64,000 nt of DNA from Geomonas silvestris. Lineage in GTDB: Bacteria; Desulfobacterota; Desulfuromonadia; Geobacterales; Geobacteraceae. The stretch is taken from positions 124,001 to 188,000 of the forward strand of contig NZ_BLXX01000002.1 in the NCBI RefSeq assembly GCF_014193515.1, given 5' to 3'. Of the stretch, positions 9,775 through 41,670 are shown one piece after another. Below the pieces are notes generated by a model. The model had not been told where the DNA came from. It searched no databases and was given only the letters and a program-made list of their open reading frames with translations. Both the position numbers and the translations under genes were made by a program. Each line of letters opens with the position of its first letter. Positions within the stretch are counted from its first letter, which is position 1.

Positions 9775-12700
9775 TCAGCGCAGCATCACCTTGTAGTTGA
9801 TGGTGAACCGCGCCCCGCTTGGGTTCATGGTGCCGGCCATGGGGATCTGCCAGTTAGTCACCAGCCCGTCGTAACCGGCCGGTGCGCCGCCGGCGCCCGA
9901 CGTGGGCACATACCCCCAGGTGGCGCCGCCGTCCTTCGAGTAGACCGGCGTCCCCAGGGTGAGCCCCGAAGCCGGGCTCCCCTCGGCGAACTGGAACGGG
10001 ACCCCGACACCGTAGGCGTTGAGGCTCCAGTAGGAATAGGGGCTCAGGACGTCGGTCAAGACGACGCCGGTCGCATACCCGGAACTGGGGTTACTGATAA
10101 CCTCGCTGTAGGTGATGAGCTGCCCGGGCGCCGCGGCGGTCGGCGTCACGGTCTTGGTGACCCCGAGGACCGGCGCCGGCGTGACGATGAGGGTCGCCGA
10201 GGCCGCGCTGCCGGTTCCCGCGTTCCCCGTCGTGATGGCGCCGGTAGTGTCCAGGTAGCTCCCCGCGCTCGCGCTGGTCACGTTGACGGTCACCGTGCAG
10301 CTCCCGTTGCCGGGGATGGTCGCGCCGGAGAGCGCCAGCGAGCTCCCGCCGTTTGCCGCCGCCACGCTGCCGCTGATGCAGGTGGTGGCCCCGGAGGCCG
10401 AGCCCGTGTTCACCAGCCCCGCGGGGTAGCTGTCGGAGAAGGCCGCCCCGGTTATCGCGATGCTGTTGGGGTTACCGAGGCTCACCGTAAGCTGCGTTAC
10501 GTTGTTGAGCAGGATCAGCGCCGGGTTGAAGCTGACGCTCGCGCTCGGTGGCTGCAGCACGTTGAGGGTCGCCGAGGCGGCACTCCCCGTGCCGGCATTG
10601 CCGGTGGTGATGGTCCCGGTGCTGCTCAGGTAGCTCCCCGCGGCTGCCGCGGTCACGGTGACGGTCACCGTGCAGCTGCCGTTGGCGGGGATGCTGGCCC
10701 CGGAGAGCGCGAGCGAACTCCCGTTGTCGGCGGCAACTACCGTCGCGCCGTTGCAGGTGGTGGCGGCTCCGGCACTCGCCGCGTTGACAAGCCCCGTGGG
10801 GTAAGTGTCGGTGAAGGCCGCGCCCGTGATGGCCACGGAGTTCGGGTTGTTCAGGGTCACCTTGAGGAGCGAGCTGCCGCCTACCCCGATCTGGTTCGGC
10901 GTGAAGGCGAGGACCGCGCTCGGGGAGGTCATGGGGGCGACCGTCAGTACCCCGCTCGCCGTCGCCGAGGTCTGCGCGTTGGAGCTCGTCACCGTGGAGG
11001 TGGTGTTGGTGTAGGTCCCTATGGTGGGGGCGGAGACCCCGACCGCCAGGGTGCAGCTGCCGCCGGCCGGGATACTGCCGCCGGTAAGCGAGAAGGAGTA
11101 CTTGTTGGCGGCGATCACCGCCGTGCCGCCGCAGCTGTTACTGAGGGTGCCCCCCGTCGCCACCACCATCTGCCCCGGCGAGGTCGGGAAGCTGTCCGAG
11201 ATGGCCACGCCGGTGAGGGCGCTGGACCCGGGGTTGCTGAGGGTGACGCTTAAGGTCGCGGTGCCGTTCACCACCACCTGGTTGGGGGTGAAGCTCTTCT
11301 GTACGGTGGGGGCGGGCAAAAGCGTGGTGGTCAGGGTGGCGCCCGCTGCCGCGGCGCTCCCCGCGTTGCCGGTCGTGACCGTGCCGGTGGAGTTCGGGTA
11401 GCTCCCCGCCGCGGCGCTGGTGACCCTGACGGTCACGGTGCAGGAACCGTTGGCCGGGATGGTGGCCCCGGAAAGGGTGAGGAGGTCGTCGCCGTCCGCG
11501 GCAGCCACCGTCGCCCCGCTGCAGGTGGTGCTCACCGAGGAGGGGGTGAGGTTCACGAGCCCCGCGGGGTAGTTGTCGGTGAACGCGGCACCGCTGATGG
11601 CGGTCGAGTTCGGGTTACTGAGGGTCACGGTCATGAGCAAGCCGGTGTTCACCAGGACCGAGGCCGGGGCAAAGCTGAGGGCGACGCTCGGGGCGCTCAG
11701 GACGGCGAGGGTGGCGCTCGCTGCCGCGGCGGTTTCGGCATTGCCGCTGGCCACCGCCCCGGTCGAGTTGAGGTAGCTCCCCGCACTCGCACTCGTCACG
11801 TTGACGGTGACCGTGCAGCTGCTGCTCGCCGGGATGCTGGCGCCCGAGAGGGAGAGCGAGCTCCCGCCGTTTGCCGCCGTCACCGTGCCGCCCGGGCAGC
11901 TGGTGGCGCCCCCGGCCGCCGCGGCATTGACGAGCCCCGAGGGGTAGCTGTCGCTTAAAGAGACCCCGGTCACCGTGGTGGCGCTGTTGTTGGTGAGCGT
12001 GATGGTCTGCAGCGAGTTCGAGTTGACCGGGACCTGCGCCGGGGTGAACGACTTCACCACCGTGGGTGCGGCGAGCCGGGTGGTGGTGAGGGTCGCGCTT
12101 GCCGTCGCGGCGCTCCCCGCGTTCGCGGTTCCGATCGGCCCGGTGGAGTTGAGGTAGCTCCCGGCAGTCGCCGAGCTGACGTTGACCGTGACGCTGCAGG
12201 TCCCCCCAGCCGGGATGCTGGCTCCCGAGAGTGCCAGGGAAGTGCCGCCGTTGGTCGCGCTCACGGTCCCCCCGCTGCAGCTGGTCGCGGCGGCGGCACT
12301 CGCCGTGTTCACCAGGTTCGCCGGGTAGCTGTCGCTGAAGGAGACCCCGGTGATGGCGGTGCTGGTGTTCGGGTTGCTGAGCGTGACGGTGAGCTGGGAG
12401 GTGCTGTTCACCAAGAGTGAGGCGGGCGAAAAGCTCATGGTTGCCACAGGGGGAGCCATCACCAGGAGGGTTCCGCTCGCCGCGGCCGCGCTCCCCGCGT
12501 TGCCGGTGGTCACGGTCTCGGTGGAATCGGTGTAGTTGCCGGCTGCCGTCGGGGTTAGGTTCACCGTGACCGTGCAGCTCCCGTTGGCCGGGATGCTGCC
12601 GCCTGCCAGGGAGAGCGAGCTGCCGCCGTTAACCGCGGTCACCGTACCGCCGCAGGTCGTACTCCCCGAGGCGCTCGCCGCGTTGACCAGGCCGGAGGGG

Positions 12701-15700
12701 TAGCTGTCGGTGAAGGCGACCCCGGTGACCGCCACCGCGTTGGGGTTACTGAGGGTCACGCTCAGCTGGGAGTTCGAGCCAAGGACGATGCTCGCCGGGG
12801 TGAAGGCGAGGGCCACGGTGGGGGGCTGCGGTCCGTTCAAAGAGGCGGTTGCCGCCGCGCCGGTTCCCGCGTTACTGCTGCTGATCGGCCCGGTGCTGTC
12901 GGTGAAGGCGCCGGTTGCCGTGACGGTCACGTTGATGGTGACGGTGCAGGAGCCGCCGGCCGGGATGGTGGCGCCGGAAAGGGCGAGCGAGCTGCCGTTG
13001 TTGGCCGCGGTTACCGTACCGCCGCAGCTGCTGGTTCCCGACGCCGAGGCGGTGTTCACCAGGTTCGCGGGATAGCTGTCGGTGAAGGCAGCCCCGGTGA
13101 TGGCCACCGTGTTCGGGTTCGAGAGGGTCACCTTGAGCTGCGAGACCCCTCCGATACCGATACTGCTCGGGGTGAAAAGGAGCGCGGCGGTCGGGGGGGC
13201 CATGACGGTGAGTGTTGCCGAGGCCGCCGTCGCGGTCCCGGCGTTTATGGTAGAGACGGGTCCGGTCGAGTTGGCGTAGACGCCGGCAGAGGCCGAGGTG
13301 GTGGTCACCGTGACGGTACAGCTGCCGCTTGCCGGGATGATGGCCCCGGTGAGCGACAGCGAGTTGCCGTTGTCGGCGGCGACGACGGTGCCGCCGGTGC
13401 AGGTGGTACTTTCCGCGGCGTTGGCCGCGTTCACCAGCCCGGCAGTGTAGGTATCCGTGAAGGAGACCCCGGTGATGGCGGTCGTGTTCGGGTTGCTGAG
13501 CGTCACCTTGTAGACCGAGCCCGCGCCGGGAAGTACCGTGGCCGGGGTGTAGCTCGCGCTCACCGTGGGGGGCTGCAGCACCGTGAGGGTGGCCGAGGCG
13601 GAGCTGCCGGTCCCGGCGTTGCCGGTAGTGACCGTCCCGGAGGGGTCGCTGTAACTCCCCGCGGCTGCCGAGGTGACGTTGACCGTGACTGTGCAGCTGC
13701 CGTTCGCCGGGATGGTGGCACCCGAAAGCGACAGCGAGTTGCCGCCGTCGGCCGCCGTCACCGTCCCGCCGGTGCAGGTGGTGCTCTCCGAGGCGTTGGC
13801 CGTGTTGAGCAGCCCCGCGGTGTAGGTATCGCTGAAGGCGGCGCCGGTGATGGGGGCCGCGTTGGGGTTCGTGATGGTGATGGTCGCCACCGAGGTGCCG
13901 TTCACCCCGATCTGGTTCGGCGTGAAGCTCTTGGTGATGGTGGGGGGAGCCATCGCCACCAGGGTCCCGGAAGCAGCGGCACCGGTCCCTACGTTGGTTG
14001 TCGTGATCGACCCGGTCGAGTTGAGGTAGGACCCTGCCGTGTTGCTCGTGGTGTTGACGGTGACGGTGCAGCTCCCGTTCGCCGGAATGGTGCCGCCGGT
14101 CAGTTTCAGCGAGGTGCCGCCGTTGGCCGCGGTCACCGTGCCGCCGCAGGTGGTGGCGCGCGCCGCCGAGGCGGTGTTGACCAGGTTCGTGGGGTAGTTG
14201 TCGGTGAAGGCGACCCCGGTCGCGGCGACGTTGTTCGGGTTATTGAGGGTCACGGTGAGCAGCGAGGTGCTGCCGCGCGGCACCGAGGCCGGCGTGAAGG
14301 TCTTGGTCGCCACCGGCGGGGCGTAGACCGTGATGGTGGAGCTGGCGCTGTCGTTGTTCGGATAGTAGTCGGTGACGGCACCCGGCTTGACCATGGTCGC
14401 GGTGTTGGTGAGCTGGCCGCCGGGCGGCGCCGCGTTCACCGTGGCGTTCAGGGTGTAGAGTACCCCGCCGTTTTTAGGGAGGTTCGCCGTACTGTTCAGG
14501 TTCCCGGTCCCCGAGGTGGCAGCGCAACTGGTCCCCGCCGGCGAGCCGCTTAGTACCGAGCAGGTCCAGTTCCCCGGGGTGAGGTAGGAGGGCATGGTGT
14601 CCTGCACCCCTACCCCGGTCGCCGTGATGGCGTTGGGGCCGTAGTTGCGCACGTTCAGCTGGTACTGGAAGGAGCCCCCCACCAGTGCGCTCGTGATCGC
14701 CGTGCTGGTGCCGGTGGCGACCGCGGTCTTGGTGACCCCCAGGTCGATCGAGGTGCTCTGGTTGATGGTGGTGATCAGGAGGTTCCTGATCTCGTGGTAG
14801 TTGGTGCTCGCCCCGGTGCTGGCCCCGAAGCCGACCTGGAGCTGCTGCGAGGCCGAGATGGCGGGGAGCGCCTGGTTGCTGATCATCTGCACCGGGGTGG
14901 TGTTGTAGCCGAACTGGATCCAGGCGTTGAGGACCGGGTTGGGGGCCGGCGAGATCGAGATGATCACCTTGCGGTAGTTGCTGCTGGTCTGCACCGGGCG
15001 GGTGGTCCCGCTGTAGCCGAGGGCGCCGTTATTCGAGGAGGTCGCGATCCAGGGGTAGGAGGTGCTCCCGGCGGTGGAGCCGGTGGCGCCCCCTCCGAAG
15101 CCGGCCACCGAACCGCGCACGGTCATGGTGTTGGCGGTCTGCCCCGGCCCCAGGTAGCGCCCTTCGGTGCCGGAGGCGAAGTTGCCGAACTCGTCGACCC
15201 CGATGCCGACGTAGCCGCCGCTCACCCCGGGGACCGCCGGGTTCACGGTCGGGGGGAGCTTCTGGGCGTAGCCCAGCGACCCGCCGAAGGCCCCGATGTT
15301 GAAGGCGGGGACCCCGGCGTCGAAGAGGAAGACCGAGTAGCCGTCCGCGCCGGTGCCGCCCCAGGTGGCGTAGTCGAACTGGACCAGGAGCCCCGAGGAG
15401 AGGTCGAAGGTGGTCGAGTTGGTGGCGTAGCCGGTCTGGTTGGTGGAGTTGCTGGTAAGGCGCAGCCAGCCGTCGCCGACCGCGTCGTCCCCGCCGGCGG
15501 TGTTGCCGGTTCCGGTGAGGCGCGCCGTGGTGGGGTTGCCGCCCAGGGTCCAGCCGGCGGCGTTATTGTCCGTCATCGGCGCGTTGATGATGATATAGCC
15601 GTAGGCAGAGGCGGAGAAGGCGAAACACAGGGCGAGTGCGAGCAGCCAGGCGAAGAGCGACCTGATCCGGCTGCTGCCAATGGTGTTGGCAAGCGGAGGT

Positions 15701-15726
15701 GTAACCAGAGACATTCTCATACTCAT
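9775..15726 (-). CDS. Giant exported lectin-like protein with eleven tandem Ig-like repeats
   Basis: The protein has 1983 residues. Three in-frame ATGs (15726, 15720, 15714) are possible starts and none has a strong ribosome site. A signal peptide (LFAWLLALALCFAFSASAYG, near residues 25-44) precedes a region of about 280 residues that looks like an L-type lectin fold (GGDDAVGDGWLRLT, VQFDYATWGGTGADGYSVFL, GIGVDEFGNF). A DUF11 module with two cysteines follows. Then come eleven repeats of about 125 residues, each with FTP, LSNPN, FTDxYPxGLVN, TTCxGGTV and TIPxNGSCTVTVN, matching the DUF11-related repeat family (DUF7933 type). A final DUF11 module ends in the strand FTINYKVMLR. Each repeat carries a conserved cysteine pair that may form a disulfide. 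It is probably a long surface adhesin with a carbohydrate-binding tip; this is an inference. Very high GC makes antisense frames open over most of its length, but those are shadows. Confidence 0.85.
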   Translation of the reverse strand: MSMRMSLVTPPLANTIGSSRIRSLFAWLLALALCFAFSASAYGYIIINAPMTDNNAAGWTLGGNPTTARLTGTGNTAGGDDAVGDGWLRLTSNSTNQTGYATNSTTFDLSSGLLVQFDYATWGGTGADGYSVFLFDAGVPAFNIGAFGGSLGYAQKLPPTVNPAVPGVSGGYVGIGVDEFGNFASGTEGRYLGPGQTANTMTVRGSVAGFGGGATGSTAGSTSYPWIATSSNNGALGYSGTTRPVQTSSNYRKVIISISPAPNPVLNAWIQFGYNTTPVQMISNQALPAISASQQLQVGFGASTGASTNYHEIRNLLITTINQSTSIDLGVTKTAVATGTSTAITSALVGGSFQYQLNVRNYGPNAITATGVGVQDTMPSYLTPGNWTCSVLSGSPAGTSCAATSGTGNLNSTANLPKNGGVLYTLNATVNAAPPGGQLTNTATMVKPGAVTDYYPNNDSASSTITVYAPPVATKTFTPASVPRGSTSLLTVTLNNPNNVAATGVAFTDNYPTNLVNTASAARATTCGGTVTAANGGTSLKLTGGTIPANGSCTVTVNTTSNTAGSYLNSTGSITTTNVGTGAAASGTLVAMAPPTITKSFTPNQIGVNGTSVATITITNPNAAPITGAAFSDTYTAGLLNTANASESTTCTGGTVTAADGGNSLSLSGATIPANGSCTVTVNVTSAAAGSYSDPSGTVTTGNAGTGSSASATLTVLQPPTVSASYTPATVLPGAGSVYKVTLSNPNTTAITGVSFTDTYTAGLVNAANAAESTTCTGGTVVAADNGNSLSLTGAIIPASGSCTVTVTTTSASAGVYANSTGPVSTINAGTATAASATLTVMAPPTAALLFTPSSIGIGGVSQLKVTLSNPNTVAITGAAFTDSYPANLVNTASASGTSSCGGTVTAANNGSSLALSGATIPAGGSCTVTINVTVTATGAFTDSTGPISSSNAGTGAAATASLNGPQPPTVALAFTPASIVLGSNSQLSVTLSNPNAVAVTGVAFTDSYPSGLVNAASASGSTTCGGTVTAVNGGSSLSLAGGSIPANGSCTVTVNLTPTAAGNYTDSTETVTTGNAGSAAAASGTLLVMAPPVATMSFSPASLLVNSTSQLTVTLSNPNTSTAITGVSFSDSYPANLVNTASAAAATSCSGGTVSATNGGTSLALSGASIPAGGTCSVTVNVSSATAGSYLNSTGPIGTANAGSAATASATLTTTRLAAPTVVKSFTPAQVPVNSNSLQTITLTNNSATTVTGVSLSDSYPSGLVNAAAAGGATSCPGGTVTAANGGSSLSLSGASIPASSSCTVTVNVTSASAGSYLNSTGAVASGNAETAAAASATLAVLSAPSVALSFAPASVLVNTGLLMTVTLSNPNSTAISGAAFTDNYPAGLVNLTPSSVSTTCSGATVAAADGDDLLTLSGATIPANGSCTVTVRVTSAAAGSYPNSTGTVTTGNAGSAAAAGATLTTTLLPAPTVQKSFTPNQVVVNGTATLSVTLSNPGSSALTGVAISDSFPTSPGQMVVATGGTLSNSCGGTAVIAANKYSFSLTGGSIPAGGSCTLAVGVSAPTIGTYTNTTSTVTSSNAQTSATASGVLTVAPMTSPSAVLAFTPNQIGVGGSSLLKVTLNNPNSVAITGAAFTDTYPTGLVNAASAGAATTCNGATVVAADNGSSLALSGASIPANGSCTVTVTVTAAAAGSYLSSTGTITTGNAGTGSAASATLNVLQPPSASVSFNPALILLNNVTQLTVSLGNPNSIAITGAAFSDSYPAGLVNTGSASGATTCISGSVAAANGGSSLALSGATIPGNGSCTVTVNVTSASAGSYLDTTGAITTGNAGTGSAASATLIVTPAPVLGVTKTVTPTAAAPGQLITYSEVISNPSSGYATGVVLTDVLSPYSYWSLNAYGVGVPFQFAEGSPASGLTLGTPVYSKDGGATWGYVPTSGAGGAPAGYDGLVTNWQIPMAGTMNPSGARFTINYKVMLR
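10177..14322 (-). repeat. Eleven tandem ~375-bp coding repeats in the giant lectin-like gene
   Basis: Eleven units encode the pattern PPxxxxxFTPxx...GSCTVTVN...AGSYxxSTG. The period is about 124-126 codons. Units differ by many substitutions, so the array is old or actively diverging rather than freshly amplified. Long direct repeats like this are prone to unit gain and loss. Confidence 0.85.
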
Positions 15727-16159: not shown

Positions 16160-16236
16160 CGGAATGTAGCGCAGCCTGGTAGCGCACCTGCTTCGGGAGC
16201 AGGGGGTCGGAGGTTCGAATCCTCTCATTCCGACCA
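16160..16236 (+). tRNA. tRNA-Pro(CGG)
   Basis: This is a 77-nt cloverleaf. The acceptor arm CGGAATG (16160-16166) pairs with CATTCCG (16226-16232), with discriminator A and an encoded CCA end. The anticodon arm is CCTGC-TTCGGGA-GCAGG with anticodon CGG, and the T arm contains TTCGAAT. A terminator follows. Two partial copies of this tRNA lie downstream at 17770-17836 and 18967-19008, so its 3' end has served as an integration site. Confidence 0.95.
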
Positions 16237-16247
16237 TTACAAATCAA

Positions 16248-16280
16248 GGTCTTTGGAGAAATCCAAGGACCTTTTTGTTT
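16248..16280 (+). terminator. Terminator after tRNA-Pro
   Basis: GGTCTTTGGA and TCCAAGGACC form a 10-bp stem with loop GAAA, followed by TTTTTGTTT. The CCATT..AAAtCAA flank is shared with the two tRNA remnants downstream. Confidence 0.85.
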
Positions 16281-16473
16281 ATCTATTCCGGTCCATCCTG
16301 TCCTGTTCCGGTACCGGAGCTATCGCCCCACCTCGTTTAGCACGACCCATAGCAATTTTTTCTTTCTTCGAACCCTTGGACCTCCTGGCTAGTGCAGGGG
16401 TAATCCCTCCGGTTCTTCCGGTACGCCTCCGTTACACTTGCCCTACTTCCCATCACTAACCCATCGGAACGTT

Positions 16474-16602
16474 TTAAACATTCCTGCCTGGTTGCTGTAG
16501 CACGAAAAGAATTCCCCTACCTGCTTCCATGGTGATTACGAACACTGCCTCCGAAAGGTTAACGGTGCTAGAAAGGCGGGTAACTATCTCTTTTTGTTGC
16601 AT
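16474..16602 (-). CDS. Possible 42-residue small protein
   Basis: ATG at 16602 is preceded by AAGGAG at a spacing of seven bases, one of the better ribosome sites in the region. The frame runs 42 codons to TAA. The peptide begins MQQKEIVTRLSSTVNLSEAV and ends with ILFVLQQPGRNV. No family is recognised and no promoter or terminator was identified, so it could be chance or a relic carried by the inserted segment. The rest of 16281-17049 shows no gene. Confidence 0.35.
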   Translation of the reverse strand: MQQKEIVTRLSSTVNLSEAVFVITMEAGRGILFVLQQPGRNV

Positions 16603-17049
16603 ACTGGCTCCTTCTGTGGCAGATAGTGGACAAAAAAACCCCCAATAGCCGATATGGACAAAGGGGCTGGAAACCGCAACTACCTTTATATAAAATTTGT
16701 GCACCGCCCCGGCGCTCTCCCCCTCTTTCACCTGTCACCGTGGAACTGATACCTCGAGGTCAGAACAAGGCAAAGGGCCACGCATGACACAGGTTCAGGC
16801 CAGCACTGTCATAGCTTACGGCCTTGAACACATAGGAGGGTGCAAGTCTTTCGTCTCAAACACCAATCCTCGGACCTTCTGTCCATCCGCCACAGTCGAA
16901 ATGCTGCTCTCCTTGTGTCGACATTCCTTACAAAGCATCATAAATCTTGTCGATTCTCCTTACACTCTACATTCTCTTTAACCATTGCCAGAGGATGCCC
17001 GGGCCTAGAAATTACTGAAAAATTGAGCACTTCGAAAACACCCTATTCT

Positions 17050-17064
17050 TGGCACAAAGAGTGC
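17050..17064 (+). promoter_or_regulatory. Sigma-54 promoter of the PEP-CTERM gene
   Basis: TGGCAC-AAAGA-GTGC has GG and GC exactly 12 bases apart, as sigma-54 requires (consensus TGGCAC-N5-TTGC, one mismatch). It sits about 58 bases before the start codon. The inverted pair TTGAGCACT (17023-17031) and AGTGCTCAA overlaps it and could be an operator. Confidence 0.6.
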
Positions 17065-17121
17065 TCAATCTTTAACACCAATATCTTTCTGCAGGACCAA
17101 ACGCAGCTCAGGGAGAAAAAA

Positions 17122-17769
17122 ATGAAAAAATTCGTTGCGGTGCTGGTTGGCGGCATGGTGTTTGGATTGGCCGGAATGGCTTCCGCCTATACCCTTAACT
17201 ACAACTACCAACTTGACGGAAACGGTGGCATGACCTCTCCGTACGCGTCGGTCTTGGTGGAAACGTTCGACGCAGGCGACACTTTAAATCTGACCTTATC
17301 AGGCGATTTCAACATCGTTCAAGGTAACGCGTCAGGCCTGCATGCCGCACCTACGGGTCCCAGCGGGCAAGACCAGACTAATTACCTGACCGTCCCCAAT
17401 GCTCGGAGTACTGGTTCCACCTTTGCAACTGGATTTGGCACTGCGAATTATCTTGGCCTCTGGTGGGGTTCCATAGATGTCTATAACACATTTAACTTCT
17501 ACAATAACAACGTCTTGGTGCAGTCCTTCACCGGATCCCAAGTTTCAACCTTGGCAAACGGCAGTTGGACAAACCCAGCAACTAACAAATACGTGAACAT
17601 CCTCGACCTGCCGGATTTCGACAAAATCGAGTTCGTCAGCACTCAGTATGCCTTTGAAACTGACAATATCGCTGTAGGCACCGTTGTGCCCGAACCGGGC
17701 ACCATGATGCTTTTGGGCGCCGGCTTCCTCGGCCTCGCCATCTTCGTCAAGCGCCGTAAATCTGCCTGA
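17122..17769 (+). CDS. PEP-CTERM-sorted exported protein
   Basis: The protein has 215 residues. The start is ATG at 17122, preceded by AGGGAG; the frame is open earlier but without a signal sequence. A signal peptide (MKKFVAVLVGGMVFGLAGMA, cleavage at SAYT) is followed by a beta-rich body (TFDLS-like strands, DNIAVG). The classic C-terminal sorting tail is VPEPG, a hydrophobic helix (TMMLLGAGFLGLAIFV) and KRRKSA. PEP-CTERM proteins are cleaved by an exosortase and are usually tied to exopolysaccharide; no exosortase is in this window. The stop codon TGA is directly joined to a tRNA-Pro remnant. Base composition is clearly more AT-rich than the flanking genes, which supports lateral arrival. 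A sigma-54 promoter lies upstream. Confidence 0.9.
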   Translation: MKKFVAVLVGGMVFGLAGMASAYTLNYNYQLDGNGGMTSPYASVLVETFDAGDTLNLTLSGDFNIVQGNASGLHAAPTGPSGQDQTNYLTVPNARSTGSTFATGFGTANYLGLWWGSIDVYNTFNFYNNNVLVQSFTGSQVSTLANGSWTNPATNKYVNILDLPDFDKIEFVSTQYAFETDNIAVGTVVPEPGTMMLLGAGFLGLAIFVKRRKSA

Positions 17770-17836
17770 TAGCGAGCCTGGTAGCGCACCTGCTTCGGGA
17801 GCAGGGGGGGAGTTTCGAATCCTCTCATTCCGACCA
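17770..17836 (+). pseudogene. Truncated tRNA-Pro copy (integration scar 1)
   Basis: The stretch matches tRNA-Pro from TAGCG of the D-arm side to the encoded CCA. It lacks the 5' acceptor strand, one base in the D region and bases in the variable/T region, and the T stem has a mismatch. The last 23 bases to CCA are identical to the intact tRNA. It starts directly after the stop of the PEP-CTERM gene. It cannot form an acceptor stem, so it is not functional. Confidence 0.85.
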
Positions 17837-17848
17837 TTTTAAAGCAAA

Positions 17849-17877
17849 GGCCCCTGGAGAGACCCAGGGGCCTTTTT
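17849..17877 (+). terminator. Terminator after tRNA remnant 1
   Basis: GGCCCCTGG and CCCAGGGGCC with a GAGAGA-type loop are followed by TTTTT. The placement relative to CCA is the same as at the intact tRNA-Pro, so tRNA end and terminator were duplicated together. It would also end the PEP-CTERM transcript. Confidence 0.85.
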
Positions 17878-18017
17878 CGTTTTGAGTTGCAACACCCCTG
17901 CCACTTGGGGCACGCCTTTCCTTGCTCATCAGCAAGGAACGCGCCACGTCCCTCCCCCATCGCCGCCCGGGCTGCCATATTCCCGAGTCTGTCCTTCCAA
18001 GAGACGCCACTTTTAAG

Positions 18018-18046
18018 TTGCAACCCACCAAATTCGACTGTATATG
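18018..18046 (+). promoter_or_regulatory. Sigma-70-like promoter of the FkbM gene
   Basis: TTGCAA at 18018-18023, a 17-base spacer and TATATG at 18041-18046 sit 72 bases before the start codon in AT-rich DNA. Confidence 0.5.
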
Positions 18047-18117
18047 AATTAATTACTACTTTTAAAAGAAAGCGACTGGCCGCTGTTGTGACAACCTGGT
18101 CTGACTTGGGAGAGTTG

Positions 18118-18954
18118 ATGAAGAGCACCATAAAGCGTGGCTGGCGTAGGCTGGCGGCAAGGCAGTCCTTCAGGAAGATTAACGAGCTCATGTTCGATTG
18201 TGCTATTGCTGGGCTCGGAATACTTAACTATGAAAACGAGTATTGGTCCGGCGAAAAATTTTTTAGCGAGAAGTTGTTGCCGCTTTATCTGACAGCTCCC
18301 AATCCCGTCCTCATGGATGTCGGTGGCAATACTGGCGACTACACGAAGATGTTGAAGACTGCCGTTCCCGAGTCAACCGTCTGGACTTTTGAGCCGAATC
18401 CCAAAACATTTGCGAAGATGTCGGAAGAGATAGCCGACCTGGGCGCACACGCGATCAACAAGGGTCTAGGTTCTGAGGAAGGAATACTGAAGTTCTACGA
18501 TAGAAAGGATCAGGCTTCGTCGTCTCAGCACGGCTCTCTCTATCGTGAAGTAATCGAGGAGTTACATCGAGTCGATTCGGAAGAGATGGAAGTTTCCATC
18601 ACGACACTGGACAAATTTTGTGAGGCCAACAGCATTGAGCGAATAAACCTGCTCAAGATAGACACCGAGGGGCACGAGCTTGAGGTTTTGAAGGGTGCAC
18701 GGGGGCTCATTGAGGCAGACAAGATCGATGTACTCCACATCGAGTTCAACGAGATGAACATCGTAAGCCGAGTATTTTTCAGGGATCTTGCGAAGATTTT
18801 GCCCAATCATTTGCCTTACCGGCTGCTTCCCCAAGGTGCCATCCCCCTGAGCGGGTCACCGCTCAAGACTGAGCTTTTTGCCTTTCAGAACCTGATATTT
18901 GTGCATCGCAAGTTTTCCCCGGACAAGTCGATGAAGCCGGGCAAGTACGCATGA
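18118..18954 (+). CDS. FkbM-family SAM-dependent methyltransferase
   Basis: The protein has 278 residues. The start is ATG at 18118 with GGGAGAG just upstream; the longer upstream frame is Cys/Pro/Arg-rich and unlike protein. Motif I of a SAM-binding Rossmann fold is seen (VLMDVGGNTGDYTKMLK), then WTFEPNPKTF. The FkbM signature LLKIDTEGHELEVLKGA and LHIEFNEMN follow. FkbM-type enzymes O-methylate sugars or other small substrates, often of surface polysaccharides or glycans; the substrate here is unknown. The gene is AT-richer than its surroundings. It is enclosed by tRNA-Pro remnants (17770-17836 and 18967-19008), with no integrase nearby, so it looks like cargo of a small integrated segment. 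Confidence 0.85.
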   Translation: MKSTIKRGWRRLAARQSFRKINELMFDCAIAGLGILNYENEYWSGEKFFSEKLLPLYLTAPNPVLMDVGGNTGDYTKMLKTAVPESTVWTFEPNPKTFAKMSEEIADLGAHAINKGLGSEEGILKFYDRKDQASSSQHGSLYREVIEELHRVDSEEMEVSITTLDKFCEANSIERINLLKIDTEGHELEVLKGARGLIEADKIDVLHIEFNEMNIVSRVFFRDLAKILPNHLPYRLLPQGAIPLSGSPLKTELFAFQNLIFVHRKFSPDKSMKPGKYA

Positions 18955-18966
18955 CGCATTTGCATT

Positions 18967-19008
18967 GGGAGCAGGGGATCGGGGGTTCGAATCCTCTCAT
19001 TCCGACCA
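18967..19008 (+). pseudogene. Truncated tRNA-Pro copy (integration scar 2)
   Basis: A 42-base match to the 3' half of tRNA-Pro (from GGGAGCAGG to CCA) with two substitutions. The last 23 bases are identical to the intact gene. It begins 12 bases after the FkbM stop codon. It probably represents the right attachment site of the array, with the original host sequence beyond it. Confidence 0.85.
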
Positions 19009-19020
19009 TTTAAATCAAAA

Positions 19021-19047
19021 GCCCTCGGCTCTTAGCCGAGGGCTTTT
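19021..19047 (+). terminator. Terminator after tRNA remnant 2
   Basis: GCCCTCGGCT and AGCCGAGGGC form a perfect stem followed by TTTTT. If the array grew by insertion at the tRNA end, this is the original terminator of tRNA-Pro. Confidence 0.85.
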
Positions 19048-19163
19048 TGCGTTGCTGTTCCGTGGCTCCTCCGGTCCGCGCAGCATGCTCCTTTCACGCG
19101 TTGACACCTTTTGTCTCCCCCAACTCCCCCATCAACAGCCACAGCAGGCAATCTCGCTCTTTC

Positions 19164-19190
19164 ATTGGTTTTGACCTAGGTCAAACCAAT
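19164..19190. promoter_or_regulatory. 27-bp dyad with FNR/DNR-type core
   Basis: The core TTGACCTAGGTCAA is a perfect palindrome of the TTGAC-N4-GTCAA type bound by CRP/FNR-family regulators. Flanks ATTGGTT and ACCAAT extend the symmetry with one base missing. It lies 29 bases before the next gene, so it could be an activator or repressor site for 19219-20299. The regulator is not in the window. Confidence 0.6.
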
Positions 19191-19218
19191 GCAGCAGGTA
19201 AGACGCCATGATTAGGTC

Positions 19219-19578
19219 ATGATGGCATATCGTGCGACGATACGGCGTGTCGCGATCCTGACGGTGCTGGCGCTCTTTATGGCGTCTTCTGCCGCTCCCG
19301 CCCACAGCCTGCGGCTCTTGAACCTCGACGCTCTCGATACGGTGACGGATTGCCATGAAAGCGACCAGAGCGGGGGCAACGGCTCCGGCGCCGGCAACGC
19401 GGACACAACAAGCCGCTGCGGGTTAGATCATCCTTTCGACACCTCCCCCACGGGAGATCTCATGGTCACGAGAGTCGAGGGGAAACTGGCCTGGCGTTTC
19501 CTGGGTGGAAGCCGCGAGGGCTACACCAGGCAGATCTATGTTCCTCCACGGTGTTCTCCTGGGCCCCGGGCTTCGTAG
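19219..19578 (+). CDS. Small exported protein of unknown function
   Basis: The protein has 119 residues. ATG at 19219 (a double ATG) has only a weak upstream ribosome site. A signal-like N-terminus (RRVAILTVLALFMASSAAPA, cleavage near AHS) is followed by a hydrophilic stretch with two cysteines and several His/Asp (DCHESDQSGG, SRCGLDHPFD), then FLGGSREGYTRQIYVPPRC. The layout resembles small periplasmic proteins found with metal or redox genes, but no family is recognised. It is 61 bases upstream of the DUF6448 gene and probably shares its promoter and the FNR-type dyad. Confidence 0.55.
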   Translation: MMAYRATIRRVAILTVLALFMASSAAPAHSLRLLNLDALDTVTDCHESDQSGGNGSGAGNADTTSRCGLDHPFDTSPTGDLMVTRVEGKLAWRFLGGSREGYTRQIYVPPRCSPGPRAS

Positions 19579-19639
19579 CAGCCTGAGGACTTCAGGCTGT
19601 TACCAGTGGACCACTTCCAACGGAACAGGAGATCTCGCC

Positions 19640-20299
19640 ATGAAAACAAAAAATCTGACACTTGCACTGGCAACGGCTGCCGTTGTCGCCTTAAGCTCAC
19701 TTTCAGCGCCTCGGCTTGCATCCGCACATTGCGATACGCTGGACGGCCCCGTGGTTCGCGATGCGCACCGGGCTCTTGAGAGCAAAAACGTCACCCCTGT
19801 CCTTAAATGGGTAAAAGCAAAGGATGAGTACGCAGTCAAAGCTGCCTTTGACAAGGCACTTGCGGCGGGCGGCGGAAAAACCGAAGCTGCCCACGAAGAA
19901 TTCTTCGCGACCCTGGTAAGGATCCACCGTGCCGGCGAAGGCGCCCCTTTTACCGGGTTGAAACCGGCTGGAGCAGTGGAACCTGCGGTGGCCGAGGCCG
20001 ACAAGGCACTGGCAAGCGGCTCTGCCGAGACCCTGGAGCACCTGGTCACCAAGGCTGTGCAGGAGGGAATCAGGAAACGCTTCGAGCGCGTGGCGGCGGC
20101 CTACCGGCACAAGGATGAAAGCGTCGTCCAAGGCAGGGAGTTCGTCGAGGCCTACGTGGACTTCACCCACTTCGTCGAGAACCTGCATACCGCCGGATCG
20201 GCTCCTGCTCATGGCGGGGGTGATGCGCATTCCGGGCACGGATCTTTCGAGGGTGCCGGGGAAAAACACCCGGACCGGGAACCGACCCATTCCCACTGA
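19640..20299 (+). CDS. DUF6448 family exported protein
   Basis: The protein has 219 residues. The start is ATG at 19640 with AGGAG at 19627-19631. A signal peptide (about 29 residues, ending LASA) is followed at once by the hallmark HCDTLDGPVV. Helical repeats come next (DAHRALESKNVTPVLKWVK, HEEFFATLVRIHRAGEGAPF, FVEAYVDFTHFVENLH), then a His-rich tail (HGGGDAHSGHG, PTHSH). The family has no known function. The N-terminal HC and the His-rich tail suggest metal or heme contact in the periplasm; that is an inference. It is followed by a strong hairpin and is probably in an operon with the preceding small gene. Confidence 0.8.
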   Translation: MKTKNLTLALATAAVVALSSLSAPRLASAHCDTLDGPVVRDAHRALESKNVTPVLKWVKAKDEYAVKAAFDKALAAGGGKTEAAHEEFFATLVRIHRAGEGAPFTGLKPAGAVEPAVAEADKALASGSAETLEHLVTKAVQEGIRKRFERVAAAYRHKDESVVQGREFVEAYVDFTHFVENLHTAGSAPAHGGGDAHSGHGSFEGAGEKHPDREPTHSH

Positions 20300-20306
20300 C
20301 ACACCT

Positions 20307-20336
20307 GGGGTTGCGGCAGACGTGCCGCAACCCCTT
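20307..20336 (+). terminator. Terminator-like hairpin after the DUF6448 gene
   Basis: GGGGTTGCGGCA and TGCCGCAACCCC form a perfect 12-bp stem with loop GACG; the following T-run is short. Confidence 0.75.
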
Positions 20337-20698
20337 CCCTCGCGCCCCATCTGCCACGGATACTGTACGTGGGGCCCGTTTCCGGCCTTTCTCCCCTTGG
20401 TCTTGATGCGGGAACTGGTCCAGCAGCACCCGTACCGGTTTTGAGACCGTCACGGGCTACTCGTCGTCCCTCGCCACTGCTTCCCATTCGTAGTGCGATG
20501 CGACACCTTCCGTTCCATTTCAAAGCGACCTCGTCGAACGAAATTGCCCCTTCCTTCCTGTTTTCTTGCCTGCTGTGGACTTACAAGCTCCACAATTCAC
20601 GGCCGAGATTCTAGAGCTTAGCTTAAAAATCTGCTCCAAATGCATTTCTCTTTCCTGGGAATGCAGCACCAGCGGCAGAGATCGCAGTTTCGGACGGC

Positions 20699-21000
20699 GG
20701 AAATTCATGACGGCACCGCGGGAATTCCAACCGGAAACGTGGAAATTCATACTGGCGACGTGGGAATGGATTCCCGCCCTTGGGAAATGCCAGTCGCGGG
20801 TGTAGTTAGAAATTCCGCCTCGGCGGGAATCGATTACCAGAGGGTGGAATTGTAATTCGTGGTGGAGAATAGGCCATCCCAGGAGTCAGTGAAGCATGTG
20901 TGGAACAAAACAATGCATCCCCGACGGGTGATCATCCTTGCGTGGAGCAAAGGAATGCATTCTCAGAGGATGGTTCAGGGTTTCGGTGCAGCGGGAATAG
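20699..21000. repeat. Degenerate 20-22-bp periodic repeat in a gene-free region
   Basis: Motifs of the type GGAAATTCAT, GGAATTCCA, GGAATGGATTCC and GGAATCGATT start near 20699, 20721, 20741, 20763, 20783, 20807, 20826, 20846, 20864, 20882, 20902 and 20944, so the spacing is mostly 18-24 bases. Copies are strongly diverged and many contain small palindromes. Two helical turns per unit would put the A/T-rich blocks on one face of the helix. The rest of 20337-21226 shows no gene that can be supported. Confidence 0.45.
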
Positions 21001-21226
21001 AATTGACCCGAAGAGAGCTCATTGTGATGGGCGAAAACTGGCTGAACAGCGCCAGTTTGACTTCGGAGGTGGGCATTTACGGGTGAGCGACGGTGAGTTT
21101 CCAACAGCGCGTGCATCAGTATCGCGCGACCGCAGGAATTACTGCAGGCAGGTTCAGCTCGAGGGGCGTGGTTGGGTTTTCTGCTGAATGAATACTCTGT
21201 GCCGACCGGGCGGTCAGCGACGGGTG

Positions 21227-21652
21227 CTACGATGCTCCTTCCGCAACAGGGATCTTTGCAGGTGCGGACTTCCGGCAGGCTCTCTTCCTGCCTCCAGGAC
21301 TCACGATACACAGCCCTTGATTGCGGAATTCCTTAAAATCCTCCTCGGTCGCTACCGATTCCAGGAAGCTGAAGATTTTGTCGAAGGCTGCCGCGATTTC
21401 TCTCATCGTTTCGTTGCGCCAGGCGACTTCCCGCGTGTCCCGGAAGGACGCAGCCGAGATCTTCTCCAAAAGACGCCCCAAAAGAGTGCGCAAAAGGTCC
21501 GGACCGGGGACTCTGTCCGGTCGGGACAGGTACAAGGTCAACTCGGAGACGACTCTGAAGAGCCGGCATGCTTCAGCCCAGAACGCGGCAGGGTTTTTTG
21601 GCATTTTGCGGGCGATACGGTCTTTGATCCACCTCCTTTCCGTTGCCGGCAC
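21227..21652 (-). CDS. Possible helical protein of unknown function
   Basis: A 141-codon frame opens with GTG at 21652. The translated sequence has the charge and hydrophobic rhythm of a helical protein (FWAEACRLFRVVSELTLYLS, LRTLLGRLLEKISAASF, AAAFDKIFSFLESVATEEDF). A very good ribosome-binding sequence, AAAGGAGGTGGATC, lies inside its first ten codons, but no usable start codon follows at the right distance. The start is therefore unclear and the gene may be damaged. A second minus-strand frame (21792 to 21538) with a short hydrophobic segment overlaps its beginning and might be an N-terminal part in another frame. No family is recognised. Confidence 0.35.
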   Translation of the reverse strand: MPATERRWIKDRIARKMPKNPAAFWAEACRLFRVVSELTLYLSRPDRVPGPDLLRTLLGRLLEKISAASFRDTREVAWRNETMREIAAAFDKIFSFLESVATEEDFKEFRNQGLCIVSPGGRKRACRKSAPAKIPVAEGAS

Positions 21653-21878
21653 TCTTCAACGGCTTCGACTTTGGGTACGGCGTGTCCTCCCGACCTTTTG
21701 TAGGCAGCCAGGGCGACCATGGTTGCGACTGGGGCAAACCCCGCCCCCAGCCATCGGCCAGTCAAGAGTATCCTTCCAATTCCGGAACGCAAGCGGATTC
21801 AGTTCCGCCAACCTACACTGACAGCTCCTGTGGCAGAATGCGGCGGTCAGGCCATCATTCCCGGCTCGGACCATAGCC

Positions 21879-22598
21879 TTAAAACGGCAGGCTGCGTGCC
21901 ACCGTTACGGCAGAAACCGCCTGTGCCCCCGCCTCCTCCAGCGCCTCCGCGCAGGCGCTCAGCGTGCTCCCGGTGGTGCAGACGTCATCCACCAAGAGCA
22001 CCCGTTTCCCCCTCAGGCGCTCCGGCCTGCGTACCGCAAACGCCCCCTTCACGTTATCCCGGCGCTGTTCCGCATCGAGGCTCGTTTGCGGTTCGGTCCA
22101 GCGCTCCCGGCACAGGCTCCCCGTGTCTATGCGCAGCTTCCAGCGCTTGGCCAGCACTTCCCCGATCAGTTGCGACTGGTTGAAGCCGCGCTGGCGCAGG
22201 CGCTTGCGGTGCAACGGCACCGGAACGACAAGATCCGGTGCGGCGTCTTCCCGAAACGGCGACAGCGCCTGGGACATCATAATCCCCAGCGGGTCGCCCA
22301 GGTGCACCTTGTAGCCGTACTTGAAGCGGTGGATGAGCTCCTGCACCGGCCCGGCGTAGAGCGTGGCGGAGCGGCTCAGGTGTGAGGGGGGATGTTTGAG
22401 GCAGGCGCCGCAGAGATGGTCGCGGCCGTTTTCAGTCTTGAAGGGGGTGCCGCAGCTCGGGCAGAGCGGGGTAACCAGGAAGGTGATCTTCTCGAGACAG
22501 GCGGGGCAGATGAGGAGGTCGCCCGCGTTGGGGATGAAGGTCTTGCAGCAGTGGCAAAGCGGCGGAAAGAGGAGATCCAGCAGAGGCCGAAGCAACAT
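21879..22598 (-). CDS. comF: ComF-family phosphoribosyltransferase-like protein
   Basis: The protein has 239 residues. The start is ATG at 22598, with GGAGGG just upstream; the longer frame to 22640 lacks a ribosome site. N-terminal zinc-ribbon cysteines are seen (FPPLCHCCKTF, LICPACLEK, LCPSCGTPF, LCGACLKHPP). A type I phosphoribosyltransferase fold follows, with VVPVPLHRKRLRQRGFNQSQ and the PRPP loop VLLVDDVCTTGSTLSAC. ComF proteins are needed for DNA uptake in some bacteria and are widely conserved in others without known competence, possibly in DNA repair or nucleotide salvage. The gene stands alone; a palindromic repeat element lies just upstream of it. Confidence 0.9.
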   Translation of the reverse strand: MLLRPLLDLLFPPLCHCCKTFIPNAGDLLICPACLEKITFLVTPLCPSCGTPFKTENGRDHLCGACLKHPPSHLSRSATLYAGPVQELIHRFKYGYKVHLGDPLGIMMSQALSPFREDAAPDLVVPVPLHRKRLRQRGFNQSQLIGEVLAKRWKLRIDTGSLCRERWTEPQTSLDAEQRRDNVKGAFAVRRPERLRGKRVLLVDDVCTTGSTLSACAEALEEAGAQAVSAVTVARSLPF

Positions 22599-22644
22599 GG
22601 TGCCCTCCGGTGCTGCGTGGGTGCAAGGTAGAAGGCCCAAGAGT

Positions 22645-22761
22645 CCCCCCTCCCCTTGCGGGAGGGGGTTAGGGGGTGGGGGAAGCTGCTACGGAGTGAC
22701 CGGGTCGGTGCTTTCCGCTGCCCCCTCACCCCGACCCTCCCCCGCCAGGGGGGAGGGGGAG
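22645..22761. repeat. Dispersed palindromic intergenic repeat, family 1 copy B
   Basis: Same design as 9510-9609 and 63781-63891: CCCTCCCCTTGCGGGAGGGG, then GGGTGGGGGAAGCTGCTACG, and a right arm CCCCCTCACCCCGACCC ending in GGGGGGAGGGGGAG. It fills most of the gap between comF and the LUD gene. Confidence 0.75.
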
Positions 22762-22811
22762 CTGGGAGAAAGCGGGGCAACTGCCAGCTTGCCGCGTCAA
22801 CCTGGAGAAGT

Positions 22812-23465
22812 CTACAGCCCCATGTCTTCGTTGACCACCAACACGCGGATGTCGGTGTTGCGGGGCTTCTTGTCGATGATGGTGGTGACGCGGCAGATGC
22901 GCTGCGGGGAGTCGCAGTTGGAGCAGAAGCCGGTGGTCGCACACGGGGTCGCAAAATTCAGCCGCTTGGCATTGGCGGGAGCCGCAAAATTCTTGATCCG
23001 CTGGATCGCGTCCTCGACGCCGCCGTCCACCAGCTTGTTGCGCCCCACCACGACGATCACCTTCTTGGGGCCGAAGAACATGGAGGCGACGCGGTTGCCG
23101 TTGCCGTCGATGTTCACGAGGACGCCGGAAAGGGTCACCGCGTTGCTCCCGGTGAGGAAGAGGTCGCAGGTCAGCTCGCGGCGGCAGAGCTCCAGCTTCT
23201 CTTCGGGGGTGAGGTCGGGCAGATTGTGGTCCACGATCTCCTTACCCATGCCCTTCAGCTTCTCCCCGAGTTTCAGATCGGCCACCGACAGCGAGCCTCC
23301 GAAGCCGACGGTCTTGGCGTCGCCGACTTCGTTCAGGATGTAGTGGAACACCTCGCCGCTGTCCTGGCAGAAGACTGCGGTGAAACCGTTTTTCGCGAGG
23401 CCGGCCACCGCCTTCTCGCACTTCTTGGCATAGGCCCAGTGGTTGAGTTCTTCGGTTTTGCTCAT
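22812..23465 (-). CDS. LUD-domain (DUF162) protein, lactate-utilisation-type
   Basis: The protein has 217 residues and starts at ATG 23465 behind GGAGAG. It reads as a single LUD domain: AVAGLAKNGFTAVFCQDSGE, VGFGGSLSVADLKLG, DLFLTGSNAVTLSGVLVNID, KKVIVVVGRNKLVDG, then a Cys cluster (CATTGFCSNCDSPQRIC) seen in stand-alone members. LUD proteins of the LutB/LutC type belong to the iron-sulfur lactate dehydrogenase complex. Stand-alone ones like this are annotated as lactate utilisation proteins without direct evidence. It lies 27 bases downstream of the flavoprotein gene on the same strand, so the two are probably co-transcribed and may act in a common redox process. Confidence 0.85.
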   Translation of the reverse strand: MSKTEELNHWAYAKKCEKAVAGLAKNGFTAVFCQDSGEVFHYILNEVGDAKTVGFGGSLSVADLKLGEKLKGMGKEIVDHNLPDLTPEEKLELCRRELTCDLFLTGSNAVTLSGVLVNIDGNGNRVASMFFGPKKVIVVVGRNKLVDGGVEDAIQRIKNFAAPANAKRLNFATPCATTGFCSNCDSPQRICRVTTIIDKKPRNTDIRVLVVNEDMGL

Positions 23466-23492
23466 GGTTCTCTCCGGGAGGTAGGTGATGGT

Positions 23493-24158
23493 TCAGCCGC
23501 GGTTGGCCCAGAATTCGCGCTCGTAGGTCCAGTAGTCCCCCATGAAGCCCACGAGCTGCTTCATCCGCTCCTTGAAGGCGTTGTGCGCCGCCATCTGGTC
23601 CGGGAAGGCGCGTTTTTCGGCGATGCTGGCGCAGAGCTCGGCGCCCAGGGTGCGGGCGTTTTCGAAGAGTTCATCCTGGTCGGGGAACTGGCGCGGTCCC
23701 GCCCCGGGGGAGGCCACGGAGCCCACGGTCAGGGCACCCAGCGCCGATACGACGCGCTCCAGGTACTCGATGACCTCCTCGTCGCCGCCGCCACCGGAGG
23801 TCTCCACCAGGGCCGCGTACTTCCCTTCCAGTGCGGTGCAGTGGACCAGGCCGTTCAGGCGGTCGATGAAGGCCTTCATCTGGGCCGAGACGTTGAAGAT
23901 GTAGTTGGGGGTGGCGAGGATGAAGCCGTCGGCGTTCATGAGCTTGGTGCGCACCTCGCTGAAATCGTCCTTGATCGGGCAGTCGCCCACCTTGTGGCAG
24001 GCGTCGCAGGCGACGCAGGGGCCGACTTCGGTGCGGTCCAGACAGACCACTTCGACCTCGGCGCCGACCTGGGCGACCCCGGCCAAAACTTCTTCGAGCA
24101 AACGGCCGGTGGTGCCGCGCATGCCGCGCGGGCTGCCGTTGATAGCAATGATTTTCAT
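23493..24158 (-). CDS. Iron-sulfur flavoprotein, NADPH-dependent FMN reductase family
   Basis: The protein has 221 residues with a flavodoxin-like fold. IIAINGSPRGMRGTTGRLLE is the FMN phosphate loop. The cysteine motif PCVACDACHKVGDC is C-x2-C-x2-C-x5-C, the compact 4Fe-4S site of the archaeal/anaerobe iron-sulfur flavoprotein family. TPNYIFNVSAQMKAFIDRL is the usual FMN contact region. Such proteins shuttle electrons or reduce oxygen and quinone-like acceptors in anaerobes. The C-terminal extension (KERMKQLVGFMGDYWTYERE) is helical. The LUD gene follows 27 bases downstream, which suggests a shared operon. The physiological acceptor cannot be told from sequence. Confidence 0.85.
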   Translation of the reverse strand: MKIIAINGSPRGMRGTTGRLLEEVLAGVAQVGAEVEVVCLDRTEVGPCVACDACHKVGDCPIKDDFSEVRTKLMNADGFILATPNYIFNVSAQMKAFIDRLNGLVHCTALEGKYAALVETSGGGGDEEVIEYLERVVSALGALTVGSVASPGAGPRQFPDQDELFENARTLGAELCASIAEKRAFPDQMAAHNAFKERMKQLVGFMGDYWTYEREFWANRG

Positions 24159-24175
24159 CGGGTTCTCCTGTTTCG

Positions 24176-24242
24176 GGCGGCGCCTCGTCAGATCGCACCG
24201 GTCGGTCGGATCTGTCGGACCGGTCCTATCGGATGCGCCGCC
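24176..24242. repeat. Inverted repeat enclosing short CGGTC-type repeats
   Basis: GGCGGCGCC-type left arm (24176-24184) and GCGCCGCC right arm (24235-24242) enclose repeated CGGTCGG/CGGACCGG units. It lies between gpmI and the flavoprotein gene and may act as terminator or spacer. A related tract with CGGTCCGACCAGGATCGG is at 9449-9472. Confidence 0.5.
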
Positions 24243-24261
24243 TCGCGAAAGTTGCCAGCTG

Positions 24262-25803: not shown

Positions 25804-25861
25804 GTCACTCTCCTTGAATACTAGAATAAAAAAAGGTGAAGAAAAACTTCACCTTAATCGT

Positions 25862-26326
25862 TTACTCGTGGTGGTACGGCTCGCCGTTCATGATGGTGAA
25901 CCCGCGGTAGATCTGTTCCAGGAGAAACACCCGGACCATCTGGTGGGTCAGCGTCATTTTGGAGAGCGAGATTGCCTTGAAGGCCTGGCTGCGGAAGCCG
26001 TCGGTAAAGCCGTAGGCCCCGCCGATGGCGAAGACCAGGTCCTGGGTCCCCTGGTCGCGCTGCTTGGTGAGAAAGTTTGCGAGCTCGGGGGAGGTCAGCT
26101 GATCGCCCCGCTCGTCCAGGACCACCAGCTTCGCCCCCTTGGGGAGCAGCTTCACGAGGCGCTCACATTCGCGCTCCCGCATCACTGCCGCCTGGGCTCC
26201 TTTTTCCTCGCGTGCCTCCAGGATCTCCAGGGGGCAGTAACGTTTGATGCGGCCTGCGTACTCCTCGATTCCTGTCTTGACCCACGCCTCCTGGGTCTTG
26301 CCGACCCAGAGGAGCTTCAGCCTCAT
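25862..26326 (-). CDS. rlmH: 23S rRNA pseudouridine-1915 N3-methyltransferase
   Basis: The protein has 154 residues, typical for RlmH, a SPOUT methyltransferase acting on the 70S ribosome. The SAM knot region reads VFAIGGAYGFTDGFR, and the C-terminus LTHQMVRVFLLEQIYRGFTI with GEPYHHE is the family signature. Its ATG overlaps the rsfS stop by four bases (ATGA), so translation is coupled. The order nadD-rsfS-rlmH is conserved in many bacteria. Confidence 0.96.
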   Translation of the reverse strand: MRLKLLWVGKTQEAWVKTGIEEYAGRIKRYCPLEILEAREEKGAQAAVMRERECERLVKLLPKGAKLVVLDERGDQLTSPELANFLTKQRDQGTQDLVFAIGGAYGFTDGFRSQAFKAISLSKMTLTHQMVRVFLLEQIYRGFTIMNGEPYHHE

Positions 26327-27349: not shown

Positions 27350-27386
27350 GGAACCGCGACCTCCGCGCGCCGGGAGCTCGTGAACA

Positions 27387-41645: not shown

Positions 41646-41670
41646 GGTAAGGCGGACTGCAGAAGGGGTG

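What the first reader, a model, noticed from the sequence alone, without database searches (positions are those of the whole stretch)
16160..19052. tRNA-Pro as a repeated landing site: two cargo segments separated by tRNA 3' ends and terminators
An intact tRNA-Pro(CGG) is followed by two truncated copies (17770-17836 and 18967-19008). The last 23 bases to the encoded CCA are identical in all three, and each is followed at the same distance by its own terminator. The enclosed segments (about 1.6 and 1.2 kb) are AT-richer than the flanks and carry one surface-related gene each: a PEP-CTERM protein with a sigma-54 promoter and an FkbM methyltransferase. No integrase is present. This looks like stepwise accretion of very small integrase-less cargo units at a tRNA end, similar in logic to satellite islands. 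The alternative is tandem tRNA-terminator duplication followed by decay.
Basis: partly seen in the sequence, partly recalled or inferred. Interest (0 to 1): 0.75.

Follow-up and report, generated by a model that had tools for sequence, protein, structure and literature searches.

The report
Relics of islands beside tRNA-Pro gene
A tRNA gene in a Geomonas-type bacterium has been used again and again as a docking site for mobile DNA islands, and the two tiny gene segments behind it look like leftovers of such islands, the first one trimmed of its integration gene; this is a new example of a known process.

Summary
In detail: an intact tRNA-Pro(CGG) (16160-16236) is followed by two same-strand 3' remnants (17770-17836, tRNA positions 8-77; 18955-19008, positions 24-77), each ahead of its own terminator, with AT-rich segments carrying a PEP-CTERM gene and an FkbM gene. 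No integrase lies in the window. Comparison with 18 congeners (GTDB genus of Geomonas and Citrifermentans bremense) shows that this tRNA end is an island hotspot. Remnants lie downstream in 9 of 19 genomes, and in 2 more on another contig that a contig break seems to have cut off. In 5 of 19 a tyrosine integrase sits at the island edge. Segment 1 is not an independent mini-cargo: it keeps the left end of an integrase+primase island seen in C. bremense and G. propionica, plus the start of one of its genes, and lacks about 7.3 kb including the integrase. No close copy of that integrase was found in the genome. Segment 2's parent was not traced. Best reading: tandem, deletion-derived, integrase-less islands (CIME-like accretion), probably fossil. 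The length of remnant 1, and 1.5-1.8 kb beta-helix units in three congeners, leave local duplication or trans-moved cassettes open.

The parts
16160..16236 (+). intact tRNA-Pro(CGG); its 3' half is the attachment core (left boundary)
   Evidence: one full-length copy in each of 19 congeneric genomes, 17 of them identical and 2 at 99%
16237..16469 (+). island left end: terminator (16246-16273) and flank with repeated TCCGGTAC motifs, perhaps integrase arm sites (inference)
   Evidence: BLAST stretches starting in the tRNA are 74-80% identical to the tRNA-proximal end of islands in G005 (to 16469), G014 (to 16436), G013 (to 16438) and to G014's second copy (to 16439); in the other congeners they end by 16303
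16474..16731 (-). ORF holding the start (MQQKEIVTRLSSTVNLSEAVFVITME...) of a small island gene, broken soon after; right side of the internal deletion
   Evidence: gene intact in G014 (92 aa) and G005 (95 aa); tblastn E 2.8e-9; DNA 16526-16668 is 73% identical to G014 +7699..+7837
17050..17064 (+). sigma-54-type -24/-12 pattern TGGCAC-N6-TGC in an inverted repeat (17018-17073)
   Evidence: sigma-54 sites are usual before proteobacterial PEP-CTERM genes (PMC1569441 passages)
17122..17769 (+). PEP-CTERM protein, 215 aa; stop codon abuts remnant 1
   Evidence: PF07589 2.1e-7
17770..17836 (+). tRNA-Pro remnant 1 (positions 8-77)
17846..17875 (+). terminator after remnant 1
   Evidence: remnant 1 with its terminator is 91% over 90 nt to the remnant and terminator of G009
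18118..18954 (+). FkbM-type methyltransferase, 278 aa
   Evidence: PF05050 2.6e-21; no match at 1e-25 in 18 of 18 congeners, 40-45% homologues in 2 of 29 other family genomes
18955..19008 (+). tRNA-Pro remnant 2 (positions 24-77)
19017..19047 (+). terminator after remnant 2
   Evidence: remnant plus terminator 86% over 121 nt to a remnant on G005:C47, taken as the right boundary of the G005 island

Best explanation
The 3' end of tRNA-Pro(CGG) is an attachment site for several tyrosine-integrase islands in this genus. Each insertion leaves the tRNA whole and puts a copy of its 3' half at the far end, and the tRNA-proximal island ends bring a new terminator. In this genome two insertions seem to be stacked. 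The proximal unit (tRNA to remnant 1, PEP-CTERM) descends from a G. propionica/C. bremense-type integrase+primase island by an internal deletion of about 7.3 kb. The distal unit (remnant 1 to remnant 2, FkbM) is perhaps the older, as its boundary has more changes; this rests on few bases. What remains are integrase-less segments between attachment-site copies, which could move only if a compatible integrase arrived. Shown: remnants, hotspot, integrases in relatives, shared left end, broken gene. Inferred: the order of events, cutting in the anticodon arm, and present immobility.
For: Remnants on the same strand downstream of tRNA-Pro in 9 of 19 genomes on the same contig, and in G005 and G014 on another contig after a contig break. 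In one search, 10 of 12 remnants start at tRNA positions 20-33. Integrases at an island edge in 5 of 19: G005, G008, G009, G014, G015. G007 against G008: the G008 remnant and the DNA after it match the G007 tRNA 3' half and the DNA after it (96% over 131 nt), and then 2470 nt at 96%; G008 alone has a 9-kb island with integrase, KAP NTPase and Abi_2 there. Segment 1: left end and gene fragment shared with G014 and G005 islands. Low GC, deviant codon use and FkbM restricted in the genus fit acquisition. Control tRNAs, in a capped list: Pro-TGG and Arg-TCT showed no truncated copies beside those of Pro-CGG; Leu-TAG partial copies occur in 7 genomes, in G000 beside an integrase.
Against: Remnant 1 reaches back to tRNA position 8, further than a cut in the anticodon arm needs; G017 (12) and G001 (full-length by eye, with a 13-nt deletion) are similar. 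The right part of segment 1 (16669-17769) shows no match to the G014 or G005 island, so the PEP-CTERM gene may have come separately. Segment 2 has no traced parent. No integrase trace is left in either segment. The deletion's left end is placed only within 16437-16526. The G007/G008 pair is not a clean empty site: G007 has an extra 2-kb tandem unit. No empty site was found for this genome itself, since the right flank is rearranged in most congeners. The tRNA is not unique: in the control search tRNA-His looks split in G008 and Leu-TAG is another island site.
Confidence: 0.74

Rival explanations
1. Tandem duplication of the tRNA-Pro/terminator unit, with intervening genes, followed by decay; no site-specific integration is needed for the window's own segments.
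For: Remnant 1 covers tRNA positions 8-77; G001 has a copy that by eye is full-length with a 13-nt deletion between short repeats; G025, another genus, has a 7-77 copy 2.1 kb downstream that matches its own tRNA variant; G007 carries two beta-helix units 90% alike in tandem.
Against: One full-length copy in each of 19 congeneric genomes; 10 of 12 remnants start at 20-33; cargo differs between genomes; integrases sit at boundaries in 5 of 19; segment 1 has pieces of an integrase island.
Confidence: 0.15
2. The segments are independent small integrase-less cargo units moved in trans by integrases that recognise the tRNA-Pro end (tycheposon- or satellite-like cassettes).
For: Recurring small units between tRNA-Pro 3' ends: the window's two; beta-helix units in G007 (two), G008 and G010; a 2-kb unit between two remnants away from the tRNA in G009. 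Segment 1 and the G013 insertion, where no integrase was seen, keep the conserved left end.
Against: Segment 1 shows an internal deletion of a larger island; no close relative of the island integrase in this genome (33%); searches with the window DNA and FkbM showed no second copy of either segment.
Confidence: 0.1

Closest known systems
CIMEs (cis-mobilizable elements) and accretion in streptococci (PMC7563491 and PMC5704250, passages)
   Same: integrase-less segments of 1.2-13 kb with cargo, between attachment-site copies, in tandem at the 3' end of a gene (tRNA-Lys in S. agalactiae), formed by deletion from integrative elements
   Different: the parent here is an integrase+primase island whose conjugative nature was not shown; no functional island is now next to the segments
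ssrA islands of Dehalococcoides (PMC3146451, passages)
   Same: tandem islands separated by 3'-end repeats of one RNA gene; 15 of those islands lack an integration module
   Different: serine recombinase and tmRNA gene there; tyrosine integrases and tRNA-Pro here
Additive fGI-2 at tRNA-Lys, and tycheposons, in Methylophilaceae (PMC10872708, passages)
   Same: recurring 3' tRNA repeats (20 bp) beside variable islands from 330 bp
   Different: other lineage and tRNA; in the passages read no deletion from an integrase island is traced

Membership tests
CIME | attachment-site copies retained at both ends | tested here: met
   tRNA plus two remnants; the 45-nt core is altered (remnant 1: 2 deleted bases, 1 mismatch; remnant 2: 4 mismatches), so function is doubtful
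CIME | no recombination or transfer genes | tested here: met
   only PEP-CTERM and FkbM genes plus one gene fragment recognised; no PF00589 match in the window; relaxase families were not searched separately
CIME | derived by deletion from an ICE or IME | tested here: inconclusive
   deletion from an integrase+primase island for segment 1; no relaxase seen in that parent, of which only parts were scanned
CIME | mobilised in cis by an adjacent integrative element | not testable with these tools
   needs excision and transfer assays; none is adjacent here
Tandem tRNA array in decay | extra intact copies in relatives | tested here: not met
   one full-length tRNA-Pro(CGG) in each of 19 of 19 genomes of the genus
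Tycheposon or phage satellite | tyrosine recombinase, or packaging/phage genes, in the unit (partly recalled) | tested here: not met
   neither recognised gene in the segments is of that kind; phage libraries were not searched

The most novel reading that the evidence does not exclude
In this genus the module 'tRNA-Pro 3' half plus terminator' acts as the boundary of a family of 1-2 kb cassettes with one or a few genes (PEP-CTERM, FkbM, beta-helix protein, permease-like/regulator) that move in trans with tRNA-Pro integrases and can land away from the tRNA, much like integron cassettes with a transcription-insulating end.
Probability: 0.1. Interest if true: 0.75.

Novelty: new member of a known kind. 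Interest (0 to 1): 0.4.

Why it matters
It documents an integration hotspot of Geomonas-type bacteria in which full, trimmed and nearly erased islands can be lined up at one tRNA gene, and shows how an integrase-less segment with a single cargo gene can arise by deletion. If the cassette reading were true, it would be a simple way to swap surface genes without disturbing the tRNA or its transcription stop.

Tried and rejected
Empty site for this genome: not found. The window's right flank (LUD and proA genes) lies about 0.54-0.8 Mb from tRNA-Pro in the 9 congeners where both are on one contig (two of these counted round a single-contig genome), and near it only in G009 and G011; 6 congeners have them on different contigs and G015 gave no match. 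G004 as an empty site for the G005 island: only approximate, since about 2.7 kb of extra DNA follows the G005 remnant. Free-end-gap identities were gap-prone (left-end controls 70-78%, true left ends 76-80%) and are not used; the BLAST matches are. TCCGGTAC motifs at the islands' right ends as proof of arm sites: absent from the G005 right end and from a G006:C21 stretch, so arm sites remain an inference. Integrase or primase traces in the segments: nothing better than E 0.09. Rfam: only the tRNA passed its gathering score. In one search one of 9 background ORFs (41492-43450) gave an odd codon score (2.08, GC3 0.43) and is probably not a real frame; the other 8 gave 0.74-1.05 against 1.32 for both cargo genes. 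Papers: no hit for Geomonas with genomic islands and tRNA; one hit for Geobacter with genomic island, tRNA-Pro and integrase, on dnd islands, whose two passages do not describe this site. The library holds open-licence papers only.

Full report
What is there. Behind the intact tRNA-Pro(CGG) lie two remnants of its 3' part on the same strand, each with its own terminator 8-9 nt after CCA. Chance is excluded: 0 matches in 100 shuffles. Segment 1 (16237-17769) ends with a PEP-CTERM gene and segment 2 (17837-18954) with an FkbM gene; by the alignment's boundaries each reading frame stops right before its remnant. Both segments are AT-rich with deviant codon use; the 433 nt before the tRNA are AT-rich too.

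The site in relatives. Each of the 19 genomes has one full-length tRNA-Pro(CGG). I scanned about 36 kb downstream of it in 17 genomes and what the contig allowed (about 6 and 9 kb) in G005 and G014. At a set score, remnants lie downstream on the same strand in 9 of 19: G000 (two), G001, G007, G008, G009, G010, G015 (two), G016, G017. G014 and G005 have one on another contig whose surroundings fit the far side of the island. Eight had none there: G002, G003, G004, G006, G011, G012, G013, G018; of these G006, G012 and G013 have a stray one elsewhere. Weaker end pieces were seen in G007 and G008 as well. The arrangement of the window was found in none of the 18 congeners.

Integrases. Tyrosine integrases with an arm-binding domain lie at the island edge in G005 and, as a homologue, in G014 (next to the tRNA, followed by a Prim-Pol/PriCT_2 primase, scanned in G005) and in G008, G009 and G015 (just inside the remnant). 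G008 and G009 integrases are 68% identical; the types share about 25-28% otherwise. G007 and G008 show the insertion: the G008 remnant and what follows match the G007 tRNA 3' half and what follows (96% over 131 nt, then 96% over 2470 nt), while the first 2 kb after the G008 tRNA have no match in the compared stretch of G007. The pair is not clean, because G007 has an extra 2-kb unit, a second beta-helix gene with a remnant, in between. In G008 and G009 the island end next to the tRNA brings a terminator unlike the usual one, which sits after the remnant.

Segment 1. Its first 200-233 nt match, at 74-80% together with the tRNA end, the tRNA-proximal end of the G005 and G014 islands, of the G013 insertion (no integrase seen in the genes scanned), and the stretch behind G014's remnant. 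In other congeners similarity ends by 16303. Next, 16526-16668 matches G014 at +7699 to +7837 (counted from about 45 nt before its tRNA), the start of a small gene that is whole in G014 and G005 but broken here. So about 7.3 kb, including integrase and primase, is missing relative to G014. The rest of segment 1 has no match in that island. The island integrase has no close relative in G000 (33%); a 45% one is in G012.

Segment 2. FkbM has no match at E 1e-25 in 18 of 18 congeners and 40-45% homologues in 2 of 29 other genomes of the family; weak 29-31% relatives occur in two congeners. Over positions 24-77 remnant 2 has 6 mismatches, remnant 1 one mismatch and one 2-nt deletion, which hints that segment 2 is older. 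Remnant 2 with its terminator is 86% identical over 121 nt to the remnant on G005:C47.

Points that do not fit neatly. Remnant 1 reaches tRNA position 8; G001 and G017, and G025 in another genus, also have long copies. G007's two beta-helix units are 90% alike, while its second is 97.5% identical to that of G008; this could be gain of a related unit or an old duplication. Remnants also occur away from the tRNA, in G009 two of them around a 2-kb unit. These keep the cassette and duplication readings alive.

Controls. Partial copies of Leu-TAG appear in 7 genomes (G000, G001, G002, G005, G007, G014, G018), tRNA-His looks split in G008, and no truncated Pro-TGG or Arg-TCT copies stood out. So tRNA ends with islands show remnants, but tRNA-Pro(CGG) is not the only such site.

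Known or new. The pattern matches published accounts of CIMEs and accretion and of tandem ssrA islands (passages), down to integrase-less units of little over 1 kb. I found no paper on this site in this genus with the searches. It works like a CIME array; membership is not settled because conjugative ancestry and mobilisation were not shown. Verdict: a real, well-supported hotspot with partly explained small segments; new member of a known kind.

Noticed in passing
L076 9862-11893 (G009, matched to G. limicola, C5): A 2-kb unit (two membrane permease-like ORFs and a PadR-like regulator, my reading of the ORFs without a family scan) lies between two tRNA-Pro remnants with terminators, far from the tRNA; sequences matching its two flanks are 110-130 kb apart in 9 congeners, so it sits at a rearranged junction.
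   Followed up: partly
L044 12556-15696; L045 13208-14503; L047 14560-15846: Beta-helix genes (lipoprotein-like start, read by eye) form 1.5-1.8 kb units between tRNA-Pro 3' ends in G007 (two in tandem), G008 and G010.
   Followed up: partly
window 19054-28643: LUD and proA genes right of the site are 0.54-0.8 Mb from tRNA-Pro in 9 congeners and near it only in G009 and G011, which suggests a large rearrangement with an end near the tRNA.
   Followed up: partly
L103 (G000:C12:200000-206000): A remnant of tRNA-Leu(TAG) (positions 35-85) lies about 200 nt from a tyrosine integrase domain; Leu-TAG is a second island site.
   Followed up: partly
L101 8073-8360 (G024, matched to Geomesophilobacter sediminis): A stray tRNA-Pro remnant in another genus is followed by a terminator very like the one after the window's tRNA and by TCCGGTAC-like motifs.
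   Followed up: no
window 9775-15726 (-): A 1983-aa repeat protein with eleven DUF7933 stretches and DUF11 lies just upstream of the tRNA; a homologue lies at the same place in G009.
   Followed up: no
L050 14785-15417 (G013): G013 has a different PEP-CTERM gene behind the same type of island left end.
   Followed up: partly
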